Assembly (NCBI GenBank): GCA_027320785.1 | Contig: DAHVKR010000012.1 | Span: 1 to 11,444 of the forward strand | Length of the DNA stretch: 11,444 nucleotides | From: Bdellovibrionales bacterium | GTDB lineage: Bacteria > Bdellovibrionota > Bdellovibrionia > Bdellovibrionales > Bdellovibrionaceae | Direction of reading: 5' to 3' | Part shown: in pieces, positions 1 to 11,444 of the stretch | Numbering within the stretch: position 1 is the first letter of the stretch | How the letters are laid out: each line of letters opens with the position of its first letter | Notes under the pieces: model-generated | Seen by the model: only the letters and a program-made list of their open reading frames with translations | Databases searched by the model: none | Told to the model about the DNA's origin: nothing | Translations under genes and position numbers: made by a program

Positions 1-1689
1 ACGCCCCTGAACTTCGATATCTTCCCCACTGCCTGGGTTTGAAATCTTCATGGTGACCAGTGAACCTTTCTCGATCATATCCTGAGCTGTAAAAGATAGT
101 CCGCCCTGAGAAAGGGTCTGCATTTGACCTACGATCTCACGGTCACCCATTTGAACTTTAATTCCAGAAGTAATATTGAAACGCTCATATTTACGACGCT
201 GCTTAGGCTGCATCATGTAGAACGTCATCCAGACACCCAATGGAATCATACAAACGAACAGAGTCAAACCTATAGCTAATCCAGATCCACCCATAGGACC
301 ATCGGAATCACCTAAGTTTTTTACCAGACCACAGCCGCCCGCCGCTCCACCAGCAGTCGAGCTCGCTGCTTCATAATTAGGTTTATAAGATGGTTGAGCC
401 GCCAAAGCTGAAACTTGGTTCTTTGCCATACTTACTAGATTATAAGAATTCACCCGTCCACCTGTTGAAACTTTTCCGCTAAAACTAGGTTTTGTATTCA
501 CAGTGGATAGGATCATTTGCTTAATTTGATAACCCGTTAACTGAGGCGCCTCACGCCACGCCTGGGCGGCAATACCTGCAACAAAAGGTGCTGCCATACT
601 CGTCCCTGACATCAAAGCATACGTATTTCCAGGATAAGTTGAGTAAATGTAATACCCTGGAGCTGCCACAGGAACTGTCGAAGCCCCATAATTGGAAAAC
701 GAAGCTAAGTTATCACTATCCGTGCTCGCGGCGACAGCAATATTACTGGGCACATCATAGCTAGCTGGATACATAGGAGTGGCATCATTATTAGAAGCGT
801 TGTTGCCCGCCGCTGTCACGACAATCACTTTATTTTGATAAGCGTAATTTAAAGCATCCAAGAGAGAGCGACTGTAAGTCCCTCCTCCCCATGAACAATT
901 AATAACCTTAGCCCCATTATCCACGGCATAATAGATGGCGCGAATGGCATCACTGGTGGCACCAGATCCTGTCGAATCTAAAAACTTCAAGGGCATAATC
1001 TGAATTTTTGAGAGGTCTAGTGACGACGAAAAAATATCCAAGCCTGTTCCGACCACAATCCCCGCAACGTGAGTCCCATGACCTTCGTCATCTTGAGGTG
1101 AATTGTTATTAGCATTAAAGTTCCAACCATACACATCGTCAACATAACCATTAAAATCATCATCCACACCGTTACTGGGGATCTCGGCTGTATTTGTCCA
1201 AAGAGCTTGGGATTGAGTGAAAACAGTGTGGGTTAGATCCACACCCGTATCAATAATGGCAACAATGGGCCGGTTGTTTACATCATAAGGAGACTGGATA
1301 CCCCATGACTGAAGCACCTGCACGGGAGCGTAGTTTTGCTGGTAAACTGTGGAGGACAGAGCTTGAACCTGCCCCTCAGAAAGAATCTGGGGCGCTCCAT
1401 TCGATCCATTTGCAGGAACCGTTGGAATCTTAGAAAGAATATAGTTGGGTTCAATATAATCCACATCAGGGTCTTGAGAAAGGGTCTGGAAGTCTTGAGG
1501 ATTATCTAATTTCAACTGAAATAGGCCAGCCTGAGGCACCTGCCCCTTAAAAGTCATCTTACCGGTCACTTTGGATTGAATCATCTGTGCCGATCGACCA
1601 CTTTTTAGTTTAATCAGATATTCGCCAGGCACGGCCTCCAAAGAAACCTGAGCCATGGCAACACTCGCTAAGAGCCAATACATCAACAT
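1..1689 (-). CDS. Subtilisin-like serine protease (S8) with transmembrane helix and C-terminal PilZ-like domain, partial
   Basis: The minus-strand frame is open from an ATG at 1689 to the window edge: 563 residues, 3' end missing. A short signal peptide (1-13, MLMYWLLASVAMA) precedes an I9-like propeptide (about 21-83, PGEYLIKLK to YIEPNY). The S8 catalytic domain (about 117-420) is complete: Asp147 in AIIDTGVD, His204 in GHGTHVAG, oxyanion Asn296 in AAGNN and Ser364 in SGTSMAAP. An Asp-rich segment at 172-191 (NGVDDDFNGYVDD) looks like a calcium site. A Gly/Ala/Ser linker with GGCG (451-454) leads to one hydrophobic helix (about 469-493), a basic QPKQRRK stretch, and a PilZ-like region from 498 with RKYER (RxxxR) and LSQGGL. 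By the positive-inside rule the protease faces the periplasm or exterior and PilZ the cytoplasm. In the PilZ (D/N)xSxxG motif the first residue is Thr525, so c-di-GMP binding is not assured. ATG 1683 is an alternative start; the RBS (GAAGAG) is weak. An in-frame stop lies 17 codons upstream. Subtilase identity is near certain; PilZ is likely. Confidence 0.93.
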   Translation of the reverse strand, partial: MLMYWLLASVAMAQVSLEAVPGEYLIKLKSGRSAQMIQSKVTGKMTFKGQVPQAGLFQLKLDNPQDFQTLSQDPDVDYIEPNYILSKIPTVPANGSNGAPQILSEGQVQALSSTVYQQNYAPVQVLQSWGIQSPYDVNNRPIVAIIDTGVDLTHTVFTQSQALWTNTAEIPSNGVDDDFNGYVDDVYGWNFNANNNSPQDDEGHGTHVAGIVVGTGLDIFSSSLDLSKIQIMPLKFLDSTGSGATSDAIRAIYYAVDNGAKVINCSWGGGTYSRSLLDALNYAYQNKVIVVTAAGNNASNNDATPMYPASYDVPSNIAVAASTDSDNLASFSNYGASTVPVAAPGYYIYSTYPGNTYALMSGTSMAAPFVAGIAAQAWREAPQLTGYQIKQMILSTVNTKPSFSGKVSTGGRVNSYNLVSMAKNQVSALAAQPSYKPNYEAASSTAGGAAGGCGLVKNLGDSDGPMGGSGLAIGLTLFVCMIPLGVWMTFYMMQPKQRRKYERFNITSGIKVQMGDREIVGQMQTLSQGGLSFTAQDMIEKGSLVTMKISNPGSGEDIEVQGR

Positions 1690-1824
1690 ATTTGTACTCT
1701 TCGGCCAAAAGTCGGGGTAGCTTAAGATACAATTTGAGACCGAGAACTTTCAGCTGAAGTCTTAAAATAGGACGTTTCTTGAGGCAAAGCAGGATCATCT
1801 TGATACGTGGCAAAGGGGGTGTTC

Positions 1825-2442
1825 GTGGCAAAAATGAGAACAATCTTTTTACGGGGTCTCATGACCCTTCTACCTATCGCCGTCACAATCTATATTCTCT
1901 ATACCGGAGTGGTTATATTTGAAGATATTTTGGGAGGTCTGATTCGCTCCCTTCTTCCAGAACATACATATATTCCAGGTCTCGGTTTCGCTTTTACGAT
2001 TTTGCTGATATTTCTTTTTGGACTTCTACTCAATAATTTAATCTCACAAACTCTTTTGCAAAAACTGGAAGAGGGACTTAAGTCCATCCCCCTAATCAAA
2101 GCCGTTTACTCTCCTTTGCAAGATCTGATCAACCTTTTCTCAAACAACAAGGGTATGAGGAGCGTTGTCCTCGTCAAATGGCAAGAGGATGGACCCTACA
2201 CAGTCGGTTTGATTACACGTGAAACTTTCGATGAATTTCCCAGCCTTCAGAACGAAGGTTTAGTCGCTGTCTTTATTCCTTTTAGCTATGCACTGGGTGG
2301 ACAAACTCTTCTCTTCAAGAAAAAGAACCTTCAGCCGATTGATATACCAGTAGAAAAAGCTTTACAGCTTTCGATTACAGCTTGGGTCAAAGGTGAGCAA
2401 TCCGACCCTGCGTCTTTAAACAAAAGAGGTTCTTCTAAATGA
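1825..2442 (+). CDS. DUF502 (COV-like) integral membrane protein
   Basis: This is a 205-residue inner-membrane protein of the DUF502 family, related to plant COV/LCV membrane proteins; its biochemical role is unknown. A basic N-terminus (MAKMRTIFLRG) precedes a first membrane segment at about 11-33. A second lies at about 53-73, directly after the family hallmark IPGLGF. The conserved SIPLIKAVYSPLQDL follows, then a soluble part with VVLVKW, YTVGLITRE and a C-terminal GGQTLLFKKKNLQPIDIPVE segment typical of the family. The frame is open back to a GTG at 1807, but GTG 1825 has an AAAGGGGG ribosome binding site 5 bases upstream and is preferred; ATG 1834 is a further alternative with worse spacing. 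It is the first gene of an operon, and its stop overlaps the next start (ATGA, 2439-2442), so the two are probably translationally coupled. Confidence 0.88.
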   Translation: MAKMRTIFLRGLMTLLPIAVTIYILYTGVVIFEDILGGLIRSLLPEHTYIPGLGFAFTILLIFLFGLLLNNLISQTLLQKLEEGLKSIPLIKAVYSPLQDLINLFSNNKGMRSVVLVKWQEDGPYTVGLITRETFDEFPSLQNEGLVAVFIPFSYALGGQTLLFKKKNLQPIDIPVEKALQLSITAWVKGEQSDPASLNKRGSSK

Positions 2443-3830
2443 GTCAGCCCACCCTACTTTCTCCTCTTGCCAAAGCTCAAATTATCAATCTCAATCCTGA
2501 AATTTATGGAACTTTTGCTGAGATTGGAGCAGGCCAAGAAGTCGCACGCCATTTTTTTATGGCAGGGAAGGCCTCACATACCATTGCCAAAACTATTTCA
2601 GCCTACGACATGATTTACAGTGACGAAATTTACGGTAAAGAAAAAAGTGGCCGTTACGTATGTGAATCTCGCCTTCTTAAAATGCTCGATAAGGAATACA
2701 ACCTCCTCCAAAAAAGACTTCACGAGAGTCGAGGGGATCGCTCCACTTTTTTTGCTTTTGCGAATACCGTAGCAACAGGTTCTTCCGAAACCCCACGCTG
2801 TCATGGATGGATGGGAGTTCGGTTTCAAACTCAACCCCAGGGCCCCGCTCACGAAGTTATTCTCCATGTTCGAATGATGGATCGGCATCGACTTCAGCAA
2901 CAGGAGTCCCTCGGCACTCTTGGAGTAAACCTCGTTCACGCTTGTTTTTACCACCGTCAAAAGCCTCATGATTTTATCACCCGCCTTGTGGATAGCCTCA
3001 AAGAAGGACAGATCGTTATTGATTACTTCCGAGCCACAGGACCCGAACTTGAGCATTTTGATAATCGTCGCATGAATATAGAACTCGTCAAAAGACGTCT
3101 TAGTGAAGCTGTTCTTTTTGATGAGAATCAAAACATTCTCAATATCGCCGACTCCACTTATCAAAAATCACTTCTTATTCAAAGAGGCAACTACCGCCCG
3201 ATCACTTCGAGCCATTTCGATATGATGGAAAAGGGAGTGGAGCAACTTAAAGCTGACGTCAAAACTCTTAAACTCAAAACGCAAGACGTGATGGTTCTCT
3301 GCGAAATCGAAATTTCTTCTTCTGATTCCAATATCGACGATATTCTGATGCGCATGGAATCACTTTCCAACTTGGGTCTTAAAACTCTTGTCACCCAATT
3401 CCCACTTTATTATCAGCTCAAAACTTTCTTCCGCAAATACACACAAAACCCTATGATCTTGGTGATGAATGGATCTCATCTAGGAAAAATATTCGATCCT
3501 CAACATTATCAAGATCTCGAGGGTGGAATTTTCGAAGGCCTTGGAAAACTATTAGACGAGAACACACGTCTTTACATTTACCCGCACAAAACAGCGAAAG
3601 AGTGCCAGACAGCCTCAACTTTCATAGCTCCAGATTCTTCCAAAAAACTTTTTGAACATTTCTACGAGCATGGTCTGATCGTTGATATTGGTGGGTGTGA
3701 TATCACCCATATTTATTACCACTCCGATCAAGTTCGAAATATGATCACTAAAAAAGATAAATCCTGGGAGTCTCTTACTCCCCCCGAACTTGTTTCATTT
3801 ATTAAAAAAACGAAGTGGTTGCAGAAGTAG
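2439..3830 (+). CDS. Conserved protein of unknown function, 463 aa
   Basis: I recognise the style of a conserved bacterial family but no characterised member. From memory, relatives in other phyla carry unreliable names such as TonB-dependent receptor or nicotinate-nucleotide adenylyltransferase, neither of which fits what is visible here. There is no signal peptide, no membrane helix and no nucleotidyltransferase HxGH motif, so it is probably cytoplasmic. The N-terminal block (about 19-65) is highly family-like: NPEIYGTFAEIGAGQEVARHF, then AGKASHTIAKTISAYDM and SDEIYG. Later blocks are FFAFANTVAT (about 104-113), GWMGVRFQ, LGTLGVNLVHACF and LEGGIFEGLGKLL followed by LYIYPHK. The Gly-rich EIGAGQ followed by a charged helix is reminiscent of a nucleotide or phosphate site, but that is speculation. 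It overlaps the DUF502 gene by 4 bp and ends 3 bp from the opposing aminopeptidase stop. Confidence 0.85.
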   Translation: MSQPTLLSPLAKAQIINLNPEIYGTFAEIGAGQEVARHFFMAGKASHTIAKTISAYDMIYSDEIYGKEKSGRYVCESRLLKMLDKEYNLLQKRLHESRGDRSTFFAFANTVATGSSETPRCHGWMGVRFQTQPQGPAHEVILHVRMMDRHRLQQQESLGTLGVNLVHACFYHRQKPHDFITRLVDSLKEGQIVIDYFRATGPELEHFDNRRMNIELVKRRLSEAVLFDENQNILNIADSTYQKSLLIQRGNYRPITSSHFDMMEKGVEQLKADVKTLKLKTQDVMVLCEIEISSSDSNIDDILMRMESLSNLGLKTLVTQFPLYYQLKTFFRKYTQNPMILVMNGSHLGKIFDPQHYQDLEGGIFEGLGKLLDENTRLYIYPHKTAKECQTASTFIAPDSSKKLFEHFYEHGLIVDIGGCDITHIYYHSDQVRNMITKKDKSWESLTPPELVSFIKKTKWLQK

Positions 3831-8859: not shown

Positions 8860-9732
8860 GTGACGCACATCTTCCTCTACTTTGTTGCGCTTTTCTCCCT
8901 TTCGCAGTCAGCCGCTTTTGCAAAATGGGCTGCGGCTCCGCCGGAAGTCATTGGCTTCTGGAGACTACTCATTGCCGGATCCCTTGTACTGCCCTGGGCC
9001 TATTGGCAAGGCTCTCTTAAACAACAATGGAGTGAGCATCGAGGTCACCGAAAATGGGTCTACTGGACAGGACTCTTTTTCTTTGCCCACCTATGGACAT
9101 TTTTTTACGCCTCCCAGCACACTCTCATTTCCCACACCATGATCATTTTTGCGACAAACCCACTTTTTGTTGCCCTCGGACAGTGGTGGCTTTCCAAAGA
9201 AAGGCCCCCTGCCAAAACAGGCCTCGCCTACGCTTTAGCCATTCTTTCTCTTCTTATTATCTTTAGACAAGCTCGAGGAACCCATGGATCTGAACTGATT
9301 GGAGATCTTTCTGCTCTAGCAGCCTCCTTCTTTTTTTCTATCTACATTTTGCTCAGTAAAAAAAGTCGAGAGGTTTTTAACAACTCTGTCTTTACTTCCA
9401 TTATGTATCTTTGTACGGCTATTTGCTTTGGGCTGATGTTAGCCCTTTCCCATCACTCTTGGACAAACTACCCTTTGAATACCTGGCAAGGGATCGGAGG
9501 ACAGATCCTTTTCTCCACTTTACTTGGCCACTCCCTCATCGCCTTCCTCATGAGATATTTAAATATCACTCTGATGACGACGGGTAAACTCGCTGAGCCC
9601 GTATTTGCCTCTATTGTTGCGAGTTTTGTATTTGCTGAGCCCCTAACGGGTTATGTGGGACTCGCTTTTTTCTTAACAGCCTGCTCGCTCGTCATTCTTT
9701 TTTGGCCCTTCAAAAAATCAAAAGCCTCTTGA
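8860..9732 (+). CDS. DMT-superfamily (EamA) transporter
   Basis: This is an inner-membrane carrier of the drug/metabolite transporter superfamily with two EamA repeats and about ten hydrophobic helices, 290 residues, the standard length. The first repeat contains PPEVIGFWRLLIAGSLVLP and a FATNPLFVALGQWWLSKERP block. The second contains LIGDLSALAASFFFSIYILLSKKSR and ends in the family-typical LAEPVFASIVASFVFAEPLTG. Substrate cannot be predicted; relatives export amino acids or other metabolites. The frame is open to a TTG at 8824, but GTG 8860 starts just before the first helix and is preferred. No RBS is visible before it, so the start is uncertain. The gene diverges from the FKBP gene. Its last 82 bp overlap the 3' end of mnmH on the opposite strand, covering the last transmembrane helix and the KKSKAS tail. 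Confidence 0.9.
   Translation: MTHIFLYFVALFSLSQSAAFAKWAAAPPEVIGFWRLLIAGSLVLPWAYWQGSLKQQWSEHRGHRKWVYWTGLFFFAHLWTFFYASQHTLISHTMIIFATNPLFVALGQWWLSKERPPAKTGLAYALAILSLLIIFRQARGTHGSELIGDLSALAASFFFSIYILLSKKSREVFNNSVFTSIMYLCTAICFGLMLALSHHSWTNYPLNTWQGIGGQILFSTLLGHSLIAFLMRYLNITLMTTGKLAEPVFASIVASFVFAEPLTGYVGLAFFLTACSLVILFWPFKKSKAS
9651..9732. other. 82-bp antiparallel coding overlap of transporter and mnmH 3' ends
   Basis: Both strands are coding here. The plus strand encodes the last transmembrane segment and KKSKAS tail of the EamA transporter; the minus strand encodes the end of MnmH. Transporter codons for FWPFKKSKAS lie opposite the family-conserved MnmH segment EAFDFLKGQ, so the overlap is not just a spurious extension. 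The terminal 15 residues of MnmH, opposite the helix GLAFFLTACSLVIL, look dispensable. Confidence 0.8.
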
Positions 9733-10766
9733 GTTCCTCCTCGAAAGGCCACCTGAGGATTTCTTTTCTGGAGAGAACCGAAGTAGAGTGGATCATAGTA
9801 CCGAAGCAAAAGTCTCTCTATCCAAACTTTATTCCCCTCTAATTCGCCATTTTCCTTCCATGCAGATTCACAGTTTTCCAATATTGAGAGAATCTCCTGG
9901 TACTCTTTCCCGCCCAAGCGTCTTTGAATATTAAATAGAGCTTTTTTATATCGAGAAAATAGTTCCTCAGAGACTGATTCTTTTTCAACATACTCTAAAA
10001 ATGTATTTTGCACTCTTTCGTCGAGAGGTGTATCCAACCAAAGAATCGAAGAGATTCGCATTTTAGAAAAAAATAATTCGGGCAAAACAGAGCGTCCGAT
10101 CAGTCGACTCTCATCTTCCATTAAGACTGGAAGGCCTGATATTTTGAGCTCAGATTCACACTTTAAAATATCCCAAGCCAATCGATTTTCAAAATTAGCT
10201 TGAGAAGGTTGTTCGCGTCCATACCCACCAAAAGCAGAGCCTCGATGTTCAGCATATTTTTCAAGGTGAAGAGTGGGCCAAAAATGTGAAGCCTCTTGTA
10301 AAAAAGCTGTTTTACCGGCCCCTGTCGCCCCCGATACAAGTAAAAAGGGATAGCTCTGACTGAAGGTCTCCATTTTCACAATTAAAGCTTGTCGTAAAGC
10401 TTTATACCCACCCGGAACAAGAGGACGATCTAACCCTTCAGCACGTAGCCAAGATTGAGTGATTTGTGAGCGTTGCCCTCCTCGAAAACACATTAAGATA
10501 GCATCAGGATGCTGACTTAAAATATTTTTCCAAGTTTCTAATTTTCTCTTTTTATTTTCACCTGATACGATTTCATGACCAAGACGAACAGCCTCGGCTT
10601 GGCCTTTCTGCTTATAAGTTAAGCCAATAAGGGCTCTCTCTTCATCATTTAGAATAGGAGCATTCAATGCCCCAGGAATATGTCCCTGCTGAAACTCACC
10701 TGGAGATCGGACGTCAATAAAAACTTGATCTTTCTGACTCCACTTCTCGAGTTGAGATATATCCAT
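9651..10766 (-). CDS. mnmH: tRNA 2-selenouridine synthase (MnmH/SelU/YbbB)
   Basis: This enzyme replaces sulfur by selenium in the 2-thiouridine at wobble position 34 of certain tRNAs, using selenophosphate and a geranylated intermediate. Counting from the TTG at 10784, an N-terminal rhodanese domain (about 8-130) carries VFIDVRSPGEFQQGHIPGA and the catalytic Cys99 in ILMCFRGGQRS. It is followed by a P-loop domain with LVSGATGAGKTAFL (Walker A 152-159) and the YAEHRGSAFGG block typical of the family. Its length, 371 residues from ATG 10766, fits E. coli YbbB (364). The ATG lies 5 bases after the selD stop with GGGAG about 11 bases upstream; TTG 10784 would instead overlap selD. The conserved region ends near EAFDFLKGQ, and the last 15 residues (RMTSEQAVKKKASPT) are an extra tail encoded antisense to the transporter gene. 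Co-transcribed with selD, which supplies its selenium donor. Confidence 0.95.
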   Translation of the reverse strand: MDISQLEKWSQKDQVFIDVRSPGEFQQGHIPGALNAPILNDEERALIGLTYKQKGQAEAVRLGHEIVSGENKKRKLETWKNILSQHPDAILMCFRGGQRSQITQSWLRAEGLDRPLVPGGYKALRQALIVKMETFSQSYPFLLVSGATGAGKTAFLQEASHFWPTLHLEKYAEHRGSAFGGYGREQPSQANFENRLAWDILKCESELKISGLPVLMEDESRLIGRSVLPELFFSKMRISSILWLDTPLDERVQNTFLEYVEKESVSEELFSRYKKALFNIQRRLGGKEYQEILSILENCESAWKENGELEGNKVWIERLLLRYYDPLYFGSLQKRNPQVAFRGGTQEAFDFLKGQKRMTSEQAVKKKASPT

Positions 10767-10771
10767 GGGCT

Positions 10772-11444
10772 TTATTTCTCCCAAATAAGAGCTTTTTCTT
10801 GCTGAGAAACAACCTCACCAATTAAACAGGTCGAAGGAAAATCTTTTTTCAATCGCAACACAGCTTCTTCTGCTTTTTCAGCAGGCATGCTCAACAGTAG
10901 ACCCCCACTGGTTTGAGGATCAAAAAGAATTTTCTTTTCTCTTTCCTCAAGATTTTGAAAGATCGACACTTCTTGTGTGTATTCGAAATTTGTTCGATGG
11001 GCCTTCGTTAAAAAACCTTTATCAATCGCTTCTTGAGCTCCTCTCAAAAGTGGAATTTGAGAGTATTGGAAACGAAAACTCACTTGGCTCGCTTGTGCCA
11101 TCTGCATACCGTGACCTGCTAAACCGAAACCTGTAATGTCTGTCGCCGCATGAACAAAGGACGCTAAGTCTCCTAAACTTGGTTTCACATGATTCAGAAG
11201 TGTCATACTTTGAAAAGCTTCTTCTAATTGCTCTTCCGTCAACTCCTGCCGCTTGAGCCCCGCAGTCAAAGCCCCCGTTCCCAAGGCTTTCGTCAAAATC
11301 AAACGATCTCCAACCCTTGCTCCCGCATTGGACCATACTCGTTGAGGGTTCACCGCCCCCGTTACACTCAGTCCAAATTTCAAAGTATCATCGTCAATGG
11401 AGTGGCCTCCCACTAAGGGTGTTGAGGCTTTTTTCAAAACATCA
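10772..11444 (-). CDS. selD: Selenophosphate synthase SelD, C-terminal part
   Basis: SelD makes selenophosphate from selenide and ATP, the selenium donor for MnmH and, where present, for selenocysteine synthesis. The window holds about the last 224 residues; the frame is open to the right edge, so the N-terminus with the Sec/Cys active site and glycine-rich loop lies outside. Visible family motifs are LVGGHSIDD followed by KFGLSVTG, RVGDRLILTKALGTGAL, the HAATDITGFGLAGHG block that starts the C-terminal AIRS domain, and FDPQTSGGLLLSMP. The TTG at 11437 is an internal Leu codon, not a start. The stop (10772-10774) lies 5 bp before the preferred mnmH ATG, so the two form an operon. Whether this SelD uses Sec or Cys cannot be seen here. 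Confidence 0.96.
   Translation of the reverse strand, partial: DVLKKASTPLVGGHSIDDDTLKFGLSVTGAVNPQRVWSNAGARVGDRLILTKALGTGALTAGLKRQELTEEQLEEAFQSMTLLNHVKPSLGDLASFVHAATDITGFGLAGHGMQMAQASQVSFRFQYSQIPLLRGAQEAIDKGFLTKAHRTNFEYTQEVSIFQNLEEREKKILFDPQTSGGLLLSMPAEKAEEAVLRLKKDFPSTCLIGEVVSQQEKALIWEK

What the first reader, a model, noticed from the sequence alone, without database searches (positions are those of the whole stretch)
1..1689. Subtilase joined through one membrane helix to a PilZ-like domain
Sequence: a complete secreted S8 protease (Asp147, His204, Ser364) is continuous in one frame with a transmembrane helix (about 469-493) and a PilZ-like region starting RRKYER with LSQGGL. Known: PilZ domains bind cyclic di-GMP via RxxxR and (D/N)xSxxG. 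Inference: the cytoplasmic second messenger, or a protein partner, could control a periplasmic or surface protease from inside, an arrangement I do not know as a described protease system. The Asp/Asn of the second motif is Thr here, so it might instead be a non-binding PilZ adaptor.
Basis: partly seen in the sequence, partly recalled or inferred. Interest (0 to 1): 0.72.

Follow-up and report, generated by a model that had tools for sequence, protein, structure and literature searches.

The report
Membrane-anchored protease with cytoplasmic PilZ domain
Bacteria related to the predator Bdellovibrio carry a cell-envelope protein-cutting enzyme joined through the inner membrane to an inward-facing signal-sensing domain, which may let a signal inside the cell control a protease outside the cytoplasm.

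Summary
Window 1-1689(-) is one continuous ORF: short signal-like N-terminus, prodomain, subtilase (S8) with intact triad, Gly-rich linker, one TM helix, PilZ domain. The contig start cuts it; relatives supply the last ~40 residues (PilZ E ~1e-17). It is not a frameshift or chimera: strong linker-TM-PilZ matches occur in 115 of 143 genomes of the class and in 0 of 225 other phylum genomes. The pairing was listed in 2008 ('Subt-PilZ', B. bacteriovorus); my searches found no functional study. New here, over 273 members: (1) PilZ is as conserved as the protease; RxxxR is invariant, but the D/N of the second motif is Thr/Ser in 260 of 267, so nucleotide binding is plausible, not shown. (2) A periplasmic-linker Cys and a TM Pro are invariant, also in three PilZ-less relatives; in 101 of 266 proteins it is the only Cys. 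(3) A FliA-type attack-phase promoter (at least 9 of 11 matches) precedes 18 of 42 orthologs tested. Best reading: an attack-phase, membrane-tethered zymogen protease whose cytoplasmic PilZ domain, through c-di-GMP/cGAMP or a partner, sets its state; a one-protein counterpart of LapD-LapG. The mechanism is inferred.

The parts
1..1689 (-). S8-TM-PilZ protein, 563 aa readable, 3' end cut by the contig edge
1648..1689 (-). short N-terminal signal-like sequence (residues 1-14, MLMYWLLASVAMAQ)
   Evidence: sequence and alignment with longer signal-like N-termini of relatives; cleavage site inferred; below the hydropathy threshold
1444..1647 (-). prodomain, residues 15-82, fervidolysin/I9-like
   Evidence: PF22148 below cut-off here (17.0 of 21 bits), above cut-off in 4 of 4 relatives; pro-subtilisin structures match the model of P0130
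493..1272 (-). Peptidase_S8 catalytic domain, residues 140-399
   Evidence: Pfam E 3.2e-54
1249..1251 (-). catalytic Asp147
   Evidence: 121 of 121
1078..1080 (-). catalytic His204
   Evidence: 121 of 121
598..600 (-). catalytic Ser364
   Evidence: 121 of 121
283..393 (-). Gly/Ser-rich periplasmic linker, residues 433-469
   Evidence: the matching stretch of the model has low confidence (residues 468-502 of P0130)
328..333 (-). invariant Cys453-Gly454 of the GGCG(L/M/R)(V/I) motif
   Evidence: 121 of 121; Cys 272 of 272 members that reach it, Gly 270 and Ala 2; motif region mean pairwise identity 0.85
226..282 (-). transmembrane helix, residues 470-488
   Evidence: hydropathy; helix 501-523 in the model of P0130
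241..243 (-). invariant Pro483 inside the TM helix
   Evidence: 121 of 121; 271 of 271 that reach it
1..201 (-). PilZ domain, residues 497-563 (incomplete)
   Evidence: PF07238 E 2.6e-9
181..195 (-). RxxxR motif, residues 499-503 (RKYER)
   Evidence: 121 of 121
100..117 (-). second PilZ motif TLSQGG, Thr in place of D/N
1699..1725 (-). FliA (sigma28)-type promoter candidate TTAAG-N16-CCGAAG, 9 of 11 matches to the published attack-phase consensus
   Evidence: consensus from PMC3627812. Alone in this window it is not beyond chance (3 matches found, 2.59 expected); the support is its recurrence at orthologs

Best explanation
The gene makes an inner-membrane-tethered subtilase zymogen. Supported by sequence: signal-like N-terminus, inhibitory-type prodomain, intact S8 triad, flexible Gly-rich linker with one invariant Cys, one TM helix with an invariant Pro, and a PilZ domain whose RxxxR lies about ten residues after the helix, hence on the cytoplasmic side. 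Inferred: the protease is made for the attack phase from a FliA-type promoter. The PilZ domain, by binding a cyclic dinucleotide through RxxxR or by docking a partner protein, changes the packing or oligomeric state of the TM-linker unit and so sets when the periplasmic protease matures, reaches its substrate or is let go. It would be inside-out control in a single polypeptide, the job that LapD and LapG share in pseudomonads.
For: Domains and triad. Distribution: strong linker-TM-PilZ match in 115 of 143 class genomes, in all 11 families sampled, and in 0 of 225 other phylum genomes, where 52 genomes match but none better than E 1.1e-11 (the four such rows listed have open frames of 161-369 aa). 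The PilZ domain is as conserved as the protease (mean pairwise identity 0.59 against 0.60) while the TM is 0.36 (266 fuller members, 4000 sampled pairs), so the PilZ domain is under constraint along with the enzyme. Both Arg of RxxxR are present in 268 of 268 members other than the three PilZ-less and two truncated ones. RxxxR is 14-27 residues after the TM Pro, 16 in 147 of 266. 141 of 143 class genomes hold a GGDEF domain. FliA-type box TTAAG-N16-CCGATA with at least 9 of 11 matches upstream of 18 of 42 orthologs tested, against 2.2% of shuffles and 3 of 42 on the opposite strand; three are perfect. B. bacteriovorus pilZ gene Bd2545, which I map to this protein by position, is down-regulated on leaving attack phase (PMC2797640, passages), and three of four DGC genes are attack-phase specific (PMC3627812, passages).
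Against: No binding, activity or localisation datum exists here. The D/N of the second motif is absent in 264 of 267 members. The PilZ part of the model has low confidence (pLDDT about 40-70). Three relatives lack PilZ yet keep the Cys-TM unit, so the protease can do without it in some lineages. The linker between protease and helix is long and of low model confidence, which makes direct allostery across the membrane harder. Changing RxxxR of PixB did not affect one of its functions (PMC8316039). Bd2545 = this gene is an inference. The promoter of the putative HD100 copy (L013) scores only 7 of 11, and the orthologs tested are not independent samples. By eye, no c-di-GMP enzyme or evident substrate lies next to the gene (only the window's own neighbours were checked with Pfam).
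Confidence: 0.5

Rival explanations
1. The PilZ domain does not bind a nucleotide. It is an adaptor that docks the protease to a cytoplasmic or polar complex (as PilZ/FimX/PilB), so it places the enzyme rather than switching it.
For: Canonical D/N missing in 264 of 267; non-binding PilZ adaptors are known (review PMC10333796, passages).
Against: RxxxR is invariant in 268 of 268 PilZ-bearing members, which a pure adaptor might not need; three members have the full canonical pair, D in L028 and L141, N in L135; PixB binds c-di-GMP without a canonical second motif (PMC8316039, passages).
Confidence: 0.28
2. The GGCG-TM-basic unit is a sorting and processing tag of the MYXO-CTERM/GlyGly-CTERM kind: the Cys is lipidated or recognised, the chain is cut there, and the protease goes on to the cell surface. 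The PilZ domain gates the cut or is what is left behind.
For: Same three-part layout (Cys motif, TM, basic cluster; PMC11980579, abstract and passages); invariant Cys, the sole Cys in 101 of 266 proteins, which excludes an internal disulfide in those; three PilZ-less relatives end in Cys motif, TM and basic tail: L031, L133, L158.
Against: No TIGR03901 match over its cut-off in any of 8 genomes tested; no NCBIfam CTERM model hit at E <= 1 in 4 proteins; the Cys lies 24-41 residues before the TM Pro, 30-32 in 142 of 266, so farther from the helix than I recall for MYXO-CTERM; a DNA pattern for the motif in 11 genomes hit, among 30 loci read, 10 members of this family, one PilZ-less paralog, 7 PheRS-like frames and 12 other frames, none of these 19 with a comparable C-terminal layout by eye.
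Confidence: 0.14
3. The invariant Cys forms a disulfide between two copies, so the active unit is a covalent dimer whose PilZ domains sit side by side; the signal acts on the dimer.
For: Invariant Cys in a periplasmic linker, alone in 101 of 266 proteins.
Against: Nothing here shows dimers; oxidative folding in these bacteria was not examined.
Confidence: 0.1
4. Assembly or frameshift artefact joining two genes.
For: The window ends inside the gene and the genome is a 67.8% complete MAG.
Against: Continuous frame of 597-698 aa in 111 of 143 class genomes; both Pfam domains in all of the best 120 listed of 7652 database relatives.
Confidence: 0.01

Closest known systems
Subt-PilZ, NP_969350.1 of Bdellovibrio bacteriovorus (Tripathi and Sowdhamini 2008, PMC2605481; passages read)
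   Same: Same domain pairing; very probably the ortholog (not checked by sequence).
   Different: A table entry and one sentence; no topology, motif, distribution, promoter or function in the passages read.
LapD-LapG (BpfD-BpfG) c-di-GMP control of a periplasmic protease
   Same: Cytoplasmic c-di-GMP state sets the availability of a periplasmic protease across the inner membrane (PMC10333796, passages).
   Different: Two proteins, degenerate EAL receptor, and (recalled) a Cys protease; here one chain, PilZ domain, serine protease.
Leptospira LIC_20173, PrsW protease fused to PilZ (PMC12943098, passages)
   Same: Membrane protease fused to a non-canonical PilZ domain.
   Different: PrsW-type metalloprotease in the membrane, not an exported subtilase.
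T7SS mycosin (TIGR03921)
   Same: Best-scoring NCBIfam S8 model for the window protein; periplasm-facing subtilase with a C-terminal TM anchor (recalled).
   Different: Far below its cut-off (132.9 of 278.75 bits); no PilZ (recalled).
MYXO-CTERM / myxosortase (PMC11980579, abstract and passages)
   Same: Invariant Cys motif, TM helix, basic cluster.
   Different: No family hit over cut-off; PilZ follows the basic cluster; Cys-TM distance longer than I recall for MYXO-CTERM.
BcsA and other effector-PilZ enzymes (PMC10333796 table)
   Same: Enzyme with PilZ on the same chain, c-di-GMP controlled.
   Different: Cellulose synthase with canonical PilZ motifs.

Membership tests
Peptidase S8 (subtilase) | Pfam PF00082 match with Asp/His/Ser triad | tested here: met
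   E 3.2e-54, triad 121 of 121
Peptidase S8 (subtilase) | proteolytic activity | not testable with these tools
   needs assay
PilZ domain family | PF07238 over gathering cut-off | tested here: met
   37.8 bits against 22.5 although truncated; E ~1e-17 in 4 of 4 full-length relatives
canonical c-di-GMP-binding PilZ | RxxxR | tested here: met
   121 of 121; 268 of 268 PilZ-bearing members
canonical c-di-GMP-binding PilZ | (D/N)xSxxG | tested here: not met
   T in the window; D/N in 3 of 267 members
canonical c-di-GMP-binding PilZ | c-di-GMP binding | not testable with these tools
   needs DRaCALA or ITC
MYXO-CTERM (TIGR03901) | model match over cut-off | tested here: not met
   0 of 8 genomes over cut-off
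LapG-type c-di-GMP-controlled protease | LapG/LapD domains | tested here: not met
   no such Pfam match to the window protein up to E 10; works-like claim only
FliA-dependent attack-phase gene of Bdellovibrio | TTAAG-N16-CCGATA upstream | tested here: inconclusive
   9 of 11 in the window, not beyond chance alone; at least 9 of 11 in 18 of 42 orthologs; putative HD100 copy 7 of 11; transcription not tested

The most novel reading that the evidence does not exclude
A one-protein inside-out protease switch of the predation programme: a cyclic dinucleotide (c-di-GMP, or the 3',3'-cGAMP that B. bacteriovorus also makes, which a PilZ site without Asp/Asn might accept) binds the cytoplasmic PilZ domain, and the signal passes through a Pro-hinged helix and an invariant juxtamembrane Cys (lipid, cut site or inter-chain disulfide) to release or arm a periplasmic subtilase at prey contact.
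Probability: 0.2. Interest if true: 0.85.

Novelty: new variant of a known kind. Interest (0 to 1): 0.56.

Why it matters
Bdellovibrio has many PilZ proteins (15 to more than 18 reported; PMC3271064, PMC9140294, PMC6733907, passages) and, in the papers I saw, few assigned outputs. Among the 18 PilZ-positive frames of genome G036 this one is by far the longest (645 aa; the other 17 are 130-303 aa; their other domains were not examined), and it ties a PilZ domain directly to an envelope protease. It is found in 115 of 143 genomes of the class, so removing one gene in a laboratory predator would test how intracellular signalling is turned into envelope proteolysis during attack.

Tried and rejected
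Rejected: frameshift or chimera. Rejected: PilZ vestigial in the family as a whole (domain identity equals that of the protease). Not supported: a general CTERM sorting tag (the TIGR03901 hits below cut-off in G039 and G124 are other proteins without a Cys in the last 90 residues shown). The DNA pattern for (G/A)GCG(L/F)(V/I/M) gave 31 matches in 11 genomes against 18 for the backward control; 30 had loci and were read: 10 of this family, one PilZ-less paralog (L086), 7 PheRS-like (by eye), 12 others. That PilZ was lost because c-di-GMP was lost: G039 and G124 still have 3 GGDEF matches each, so not supported. In-frame TAA reported in G137 and G138 proved to be the normal gene end. Copies cut at contig ends, not PilZ losses: G100, and G071, G035 and G114 (matches start within 14 bases of a contig end). 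A tree of 33 rows (39 planned; six names were missing because duplicate rows had been dropped) places the three PilZ-less rows apart (L158 within an f4 group at 94/97, L031 with f6 at 83/58, L133 unresolved), but L133 and L158 are long branches and the group test compared only labelled rows, so the number of losses is open. The genome-contig scan found only distant S8 relatives (3 of 31 stretches). Presence of S8-PilZ outside the phylum was not tested. PHROGs gave two families, one called protease, one without function. At a laxer promoter threshold (8 of 11) the contrast is weaker: 33 of 42 forward, 13 of 42 reverse, 23% of shuffles. Literature: searches found no functional study of this fusion in open-licence papers; Rotem et al. 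2015 on the B. bacteriovorus c-di-GMP network (recalled) and Galperin and Chou 2020 are not held.

Full report
Observation. The window is contig 33 of a 1.88-Mb, 67.8% complete genome in 427 contigs. The first 1689 bases, read on the minus strand, are one open frame of 563 aa that runs off the contig start. Pfam finds Peptidase_S8 (E 3.2e-54, residues 140-399) and PilZ (E 2.6e-9, residues 497-563, 68 of 102 profile positions); a fervidolysin-type prodomain falls just short (17.0 of 21 bits). In four full-length relatives the PilZ domain scores 1.6e-17 to 3.4e-17 and the prodomain passes its cut-off in all four. Hydropathy gives one segment over threshold, 470-488; the 14-residue signal-like start is below it and export is inferred from the alignment with longer signal-like N-termini. 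The basic stretch after the helix (KQRRKYER) fits a cytoplasmic C-terminal side by the positive-inside rule (recalled).

Model. AlphaFold2 on the B. bacteriovorus relative P0130 with an 85-row alignment: mean pLDDT 82.4; prodomain and protease mostly above 85, linker 468-502 below 50, helix 501-523, then a strand-rich PilZ part at low to middling confidence. Foldseek puts deseasin MCP-01 first, and pro-forms (PvSUB1 4tr2, pro-subtilisin E 3whi, fervidolysin 1r6v, ProN-Tk-SP 3afg) align over 423-511 columns, which supports a zymogen with an inhibitory prodomain. The PilZ fold rests on the Pfam match, not on the model; by sequence the nearest solved PilZ protein is YpfA (5vx6, E 0.0061).

Family. 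The best 120 listed of 7652 database relatives all carry both Pfam domains, and so do the best 120 listed of 171 in a search with the linker-TM-PilZ part alone. With a seven-row profile of that part (A2), 130 of 143 genomes of the class match; by my count of the rows 115 do so at E <= 1.5e-17, 15 only weakly and 13 not at all. Over the phylum 182 of 368 match; the 52 outside the class reach no better than E 1.1e-11, and the four of their rows that are listed have frames of 161-369 aa (weaker rows are not listed). So the fusion is confined to this class in this sample. The 13 genomes without a match are all from one family (f4) and 1.2-2.1 Mb in size. Neighbours in five genomes of the window's family (L024-L028): an MgtE-like protein and two ABC-type proteins (names by eye) lie beyond the 3' end in 5 of 5; the DUF502-like gene was called in 3 of 5 and the conserved gene without Pfam match in 4 of 5, on the 5' side (simple ORF calling, unsure in GC-rich loci); none of these groups was found in L029 and L030 from two other families. 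None suggests a substrate or a c-di-GMP enzyme.

What is conserved. I took as members the 273 sequences scoring at least 290 bits to P0114; the next is at 248. Triad: 271, 272 and 273, the rest gaps. Linker Cys: 272 of 272 that reach it. TM Pro: 271 of 271. The only members lacking any of Cys, Pro or the two Arg are three PilZ-less (L031, L133, L158) and two truncated ones (L152, L154), so RxxxR stands in 268 of 268 others. Second motif, first position: T 223, S 37, C 3, D 2, N 1, V 1 (267). Mean pairwise identity over 266 fuller members: protease 0.60, PilZ 0.59, Cys-Gly motif 0.85, TM 0.36, Gly linker 0.36. In 101 of 266 the sequence holds exactly one Cys, which by its invariance must be the linker Cys; an internal disulfide is impossible there. 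(The window protein itself has three.) The three PilZ-less relatives end in the same Cys motif, a Pro-bearing TM helix and a short basic tail: L031 (a paralog; G030 also has a full-length copy, L016/L099), L133 (G039) and L158 (G124). So the Cys-TM unit has a job of its own, apart from PilZ.

Other PilZ proteins of the same genome. Ten PilZ matches were found in G000, eight of them over the cut-off; a simple motif search recovered both motifs in eight of the ten loci, of which five have D/N at the second motif and three (Q, S and the T of this protein) do not (the regex misses divergent forms and may catch chance ones).

Expression. The published attack-phase promoter consensus of B. bacteriovorus is TTAAG-N16-CCGATA, FliA-like (PMC3627812, passages). 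The window has TTAAG-N16-CCGAAG at 1725-1699, ending 9 bases before the ATG. Alone this is not beyond chance: 3 matches with up to 2 mismatches in the window, 2.59 expected. Across 42 upstream regions (window and 41 loci for which I held enough upstream DNA; two, L011 and L012, share the same site), best matches of at least 9 of 11 occur in 18, against 2.2% of dinucleotide shuffles and 3 of 42 on the opposite strand; L003, L004 and L018 are perfect. At 8 of 11 the figures are 33, 23% and 13. Related sequences are not independent, so these are not probabilities. Nine regions score 6 or 7, among them L013, the putative HD100 copy; with the E. coli consensus that site is 4 of 4 and 6 of 8. In the window and several relatives the site lies so close to the start codon that the message would be nearly leaderless; the start codon is therefore not certain.

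Link to the model organism. G036 has a contig of 3,782,950 bases, the length I recall for HD100; it has 18 PilZ and 5 GGDEF matches, as reported for B. bacteriovorus (PMC9140294 passage). Its S8-PilZ gene lies at 2.455 Mb and another PilZ gene at 2.431 Mb, which fits Bd2545 and Bd2524 by numbering. Both are among three pilZ genes reported as down-regulated on the shift from attack phase to predation or host-independent growth (PMC2797640, passages). This identification is inference.

How it probably works. Supported by sequence: an exported, membrane-tethered subtilase zymogen with an intact triad and a cytoplasmic PilZ domain, the two halves conserved alike. Inferred: attack-phase supply by FliA, control from inside. 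RxxxR sits close to the helix, and ligand binding to PilZ is described as causing substantial conformational changes (review passage, PMC10333796), so a change in PilZ packing could twist or pair the Pro-bearing helices and move the Cys-bearing linker. Whether the outcome is maturation, clustering, disulfide pairing or release is open. PixB of M. xanthus shows that a PilZ protein without a canonical second motif can still bind c-di-GMP, but an adaptor role cannot be ruled out.

Novelty. The pairing was listed in 2008. I found no functional work on it in the searches, which cover only open-licence papers. Protease-PilZ coupling is described in another form in Leptospira, and c-di-GMP control of a periplasmic protease in LapD-LapG. 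The invariant Cys/Pro unit, its persistence without PilZ, the class-wide distribution and the promoter I did not see in any passage read.

The odds did not need changing.

Noticed in passing
L040 71-1459 (+), G000:C409: 462-aa protein with a PilZ match just below cut-off (21.8 bits; REYR, DISPNG) followed by what looks like a GNAT-type acyltransferase region, reminiscent of PixB of M. xanthus; the acyltransferase part is by eye.
   Followed up: partly
L031 6819-8291 (+), G030:C9: PilZ-less paralog of the S8 protein ending in GGGCGLVK, TM with Pro and RRR; a full-length copy is on contig C10 of the same genome.
   Followed up: partly
window 2439-3830 (+): 463-aa protein without Pfam match at 1e-5, with a relative near the S8-PilZ gene in 4 of 5 same-family loci.
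   Followed up: no
window 9651-11443 (-): Rhodanese-domain protein that looks like MnmH (tRNA 2-selenouridine synthase, by eye) next to a gene with an AIRS_C match that looks like selD and is cut by the contig end.
   Followed up: no
window 1699-1725 and ortholog promoters L004, L150: The spacer of the promoter-like site often holds GAC(C/T) and a G(T/G)C next to the -10, in L004 and L150 the palindrome GACCTAGGTC; a possible operator.
   Followed up: no
L155, G126:C4: S8-PilZ-type protein with a degenerate PilZ end (LCWSAGG), possibly on the way to losing it.
   Followed up: no
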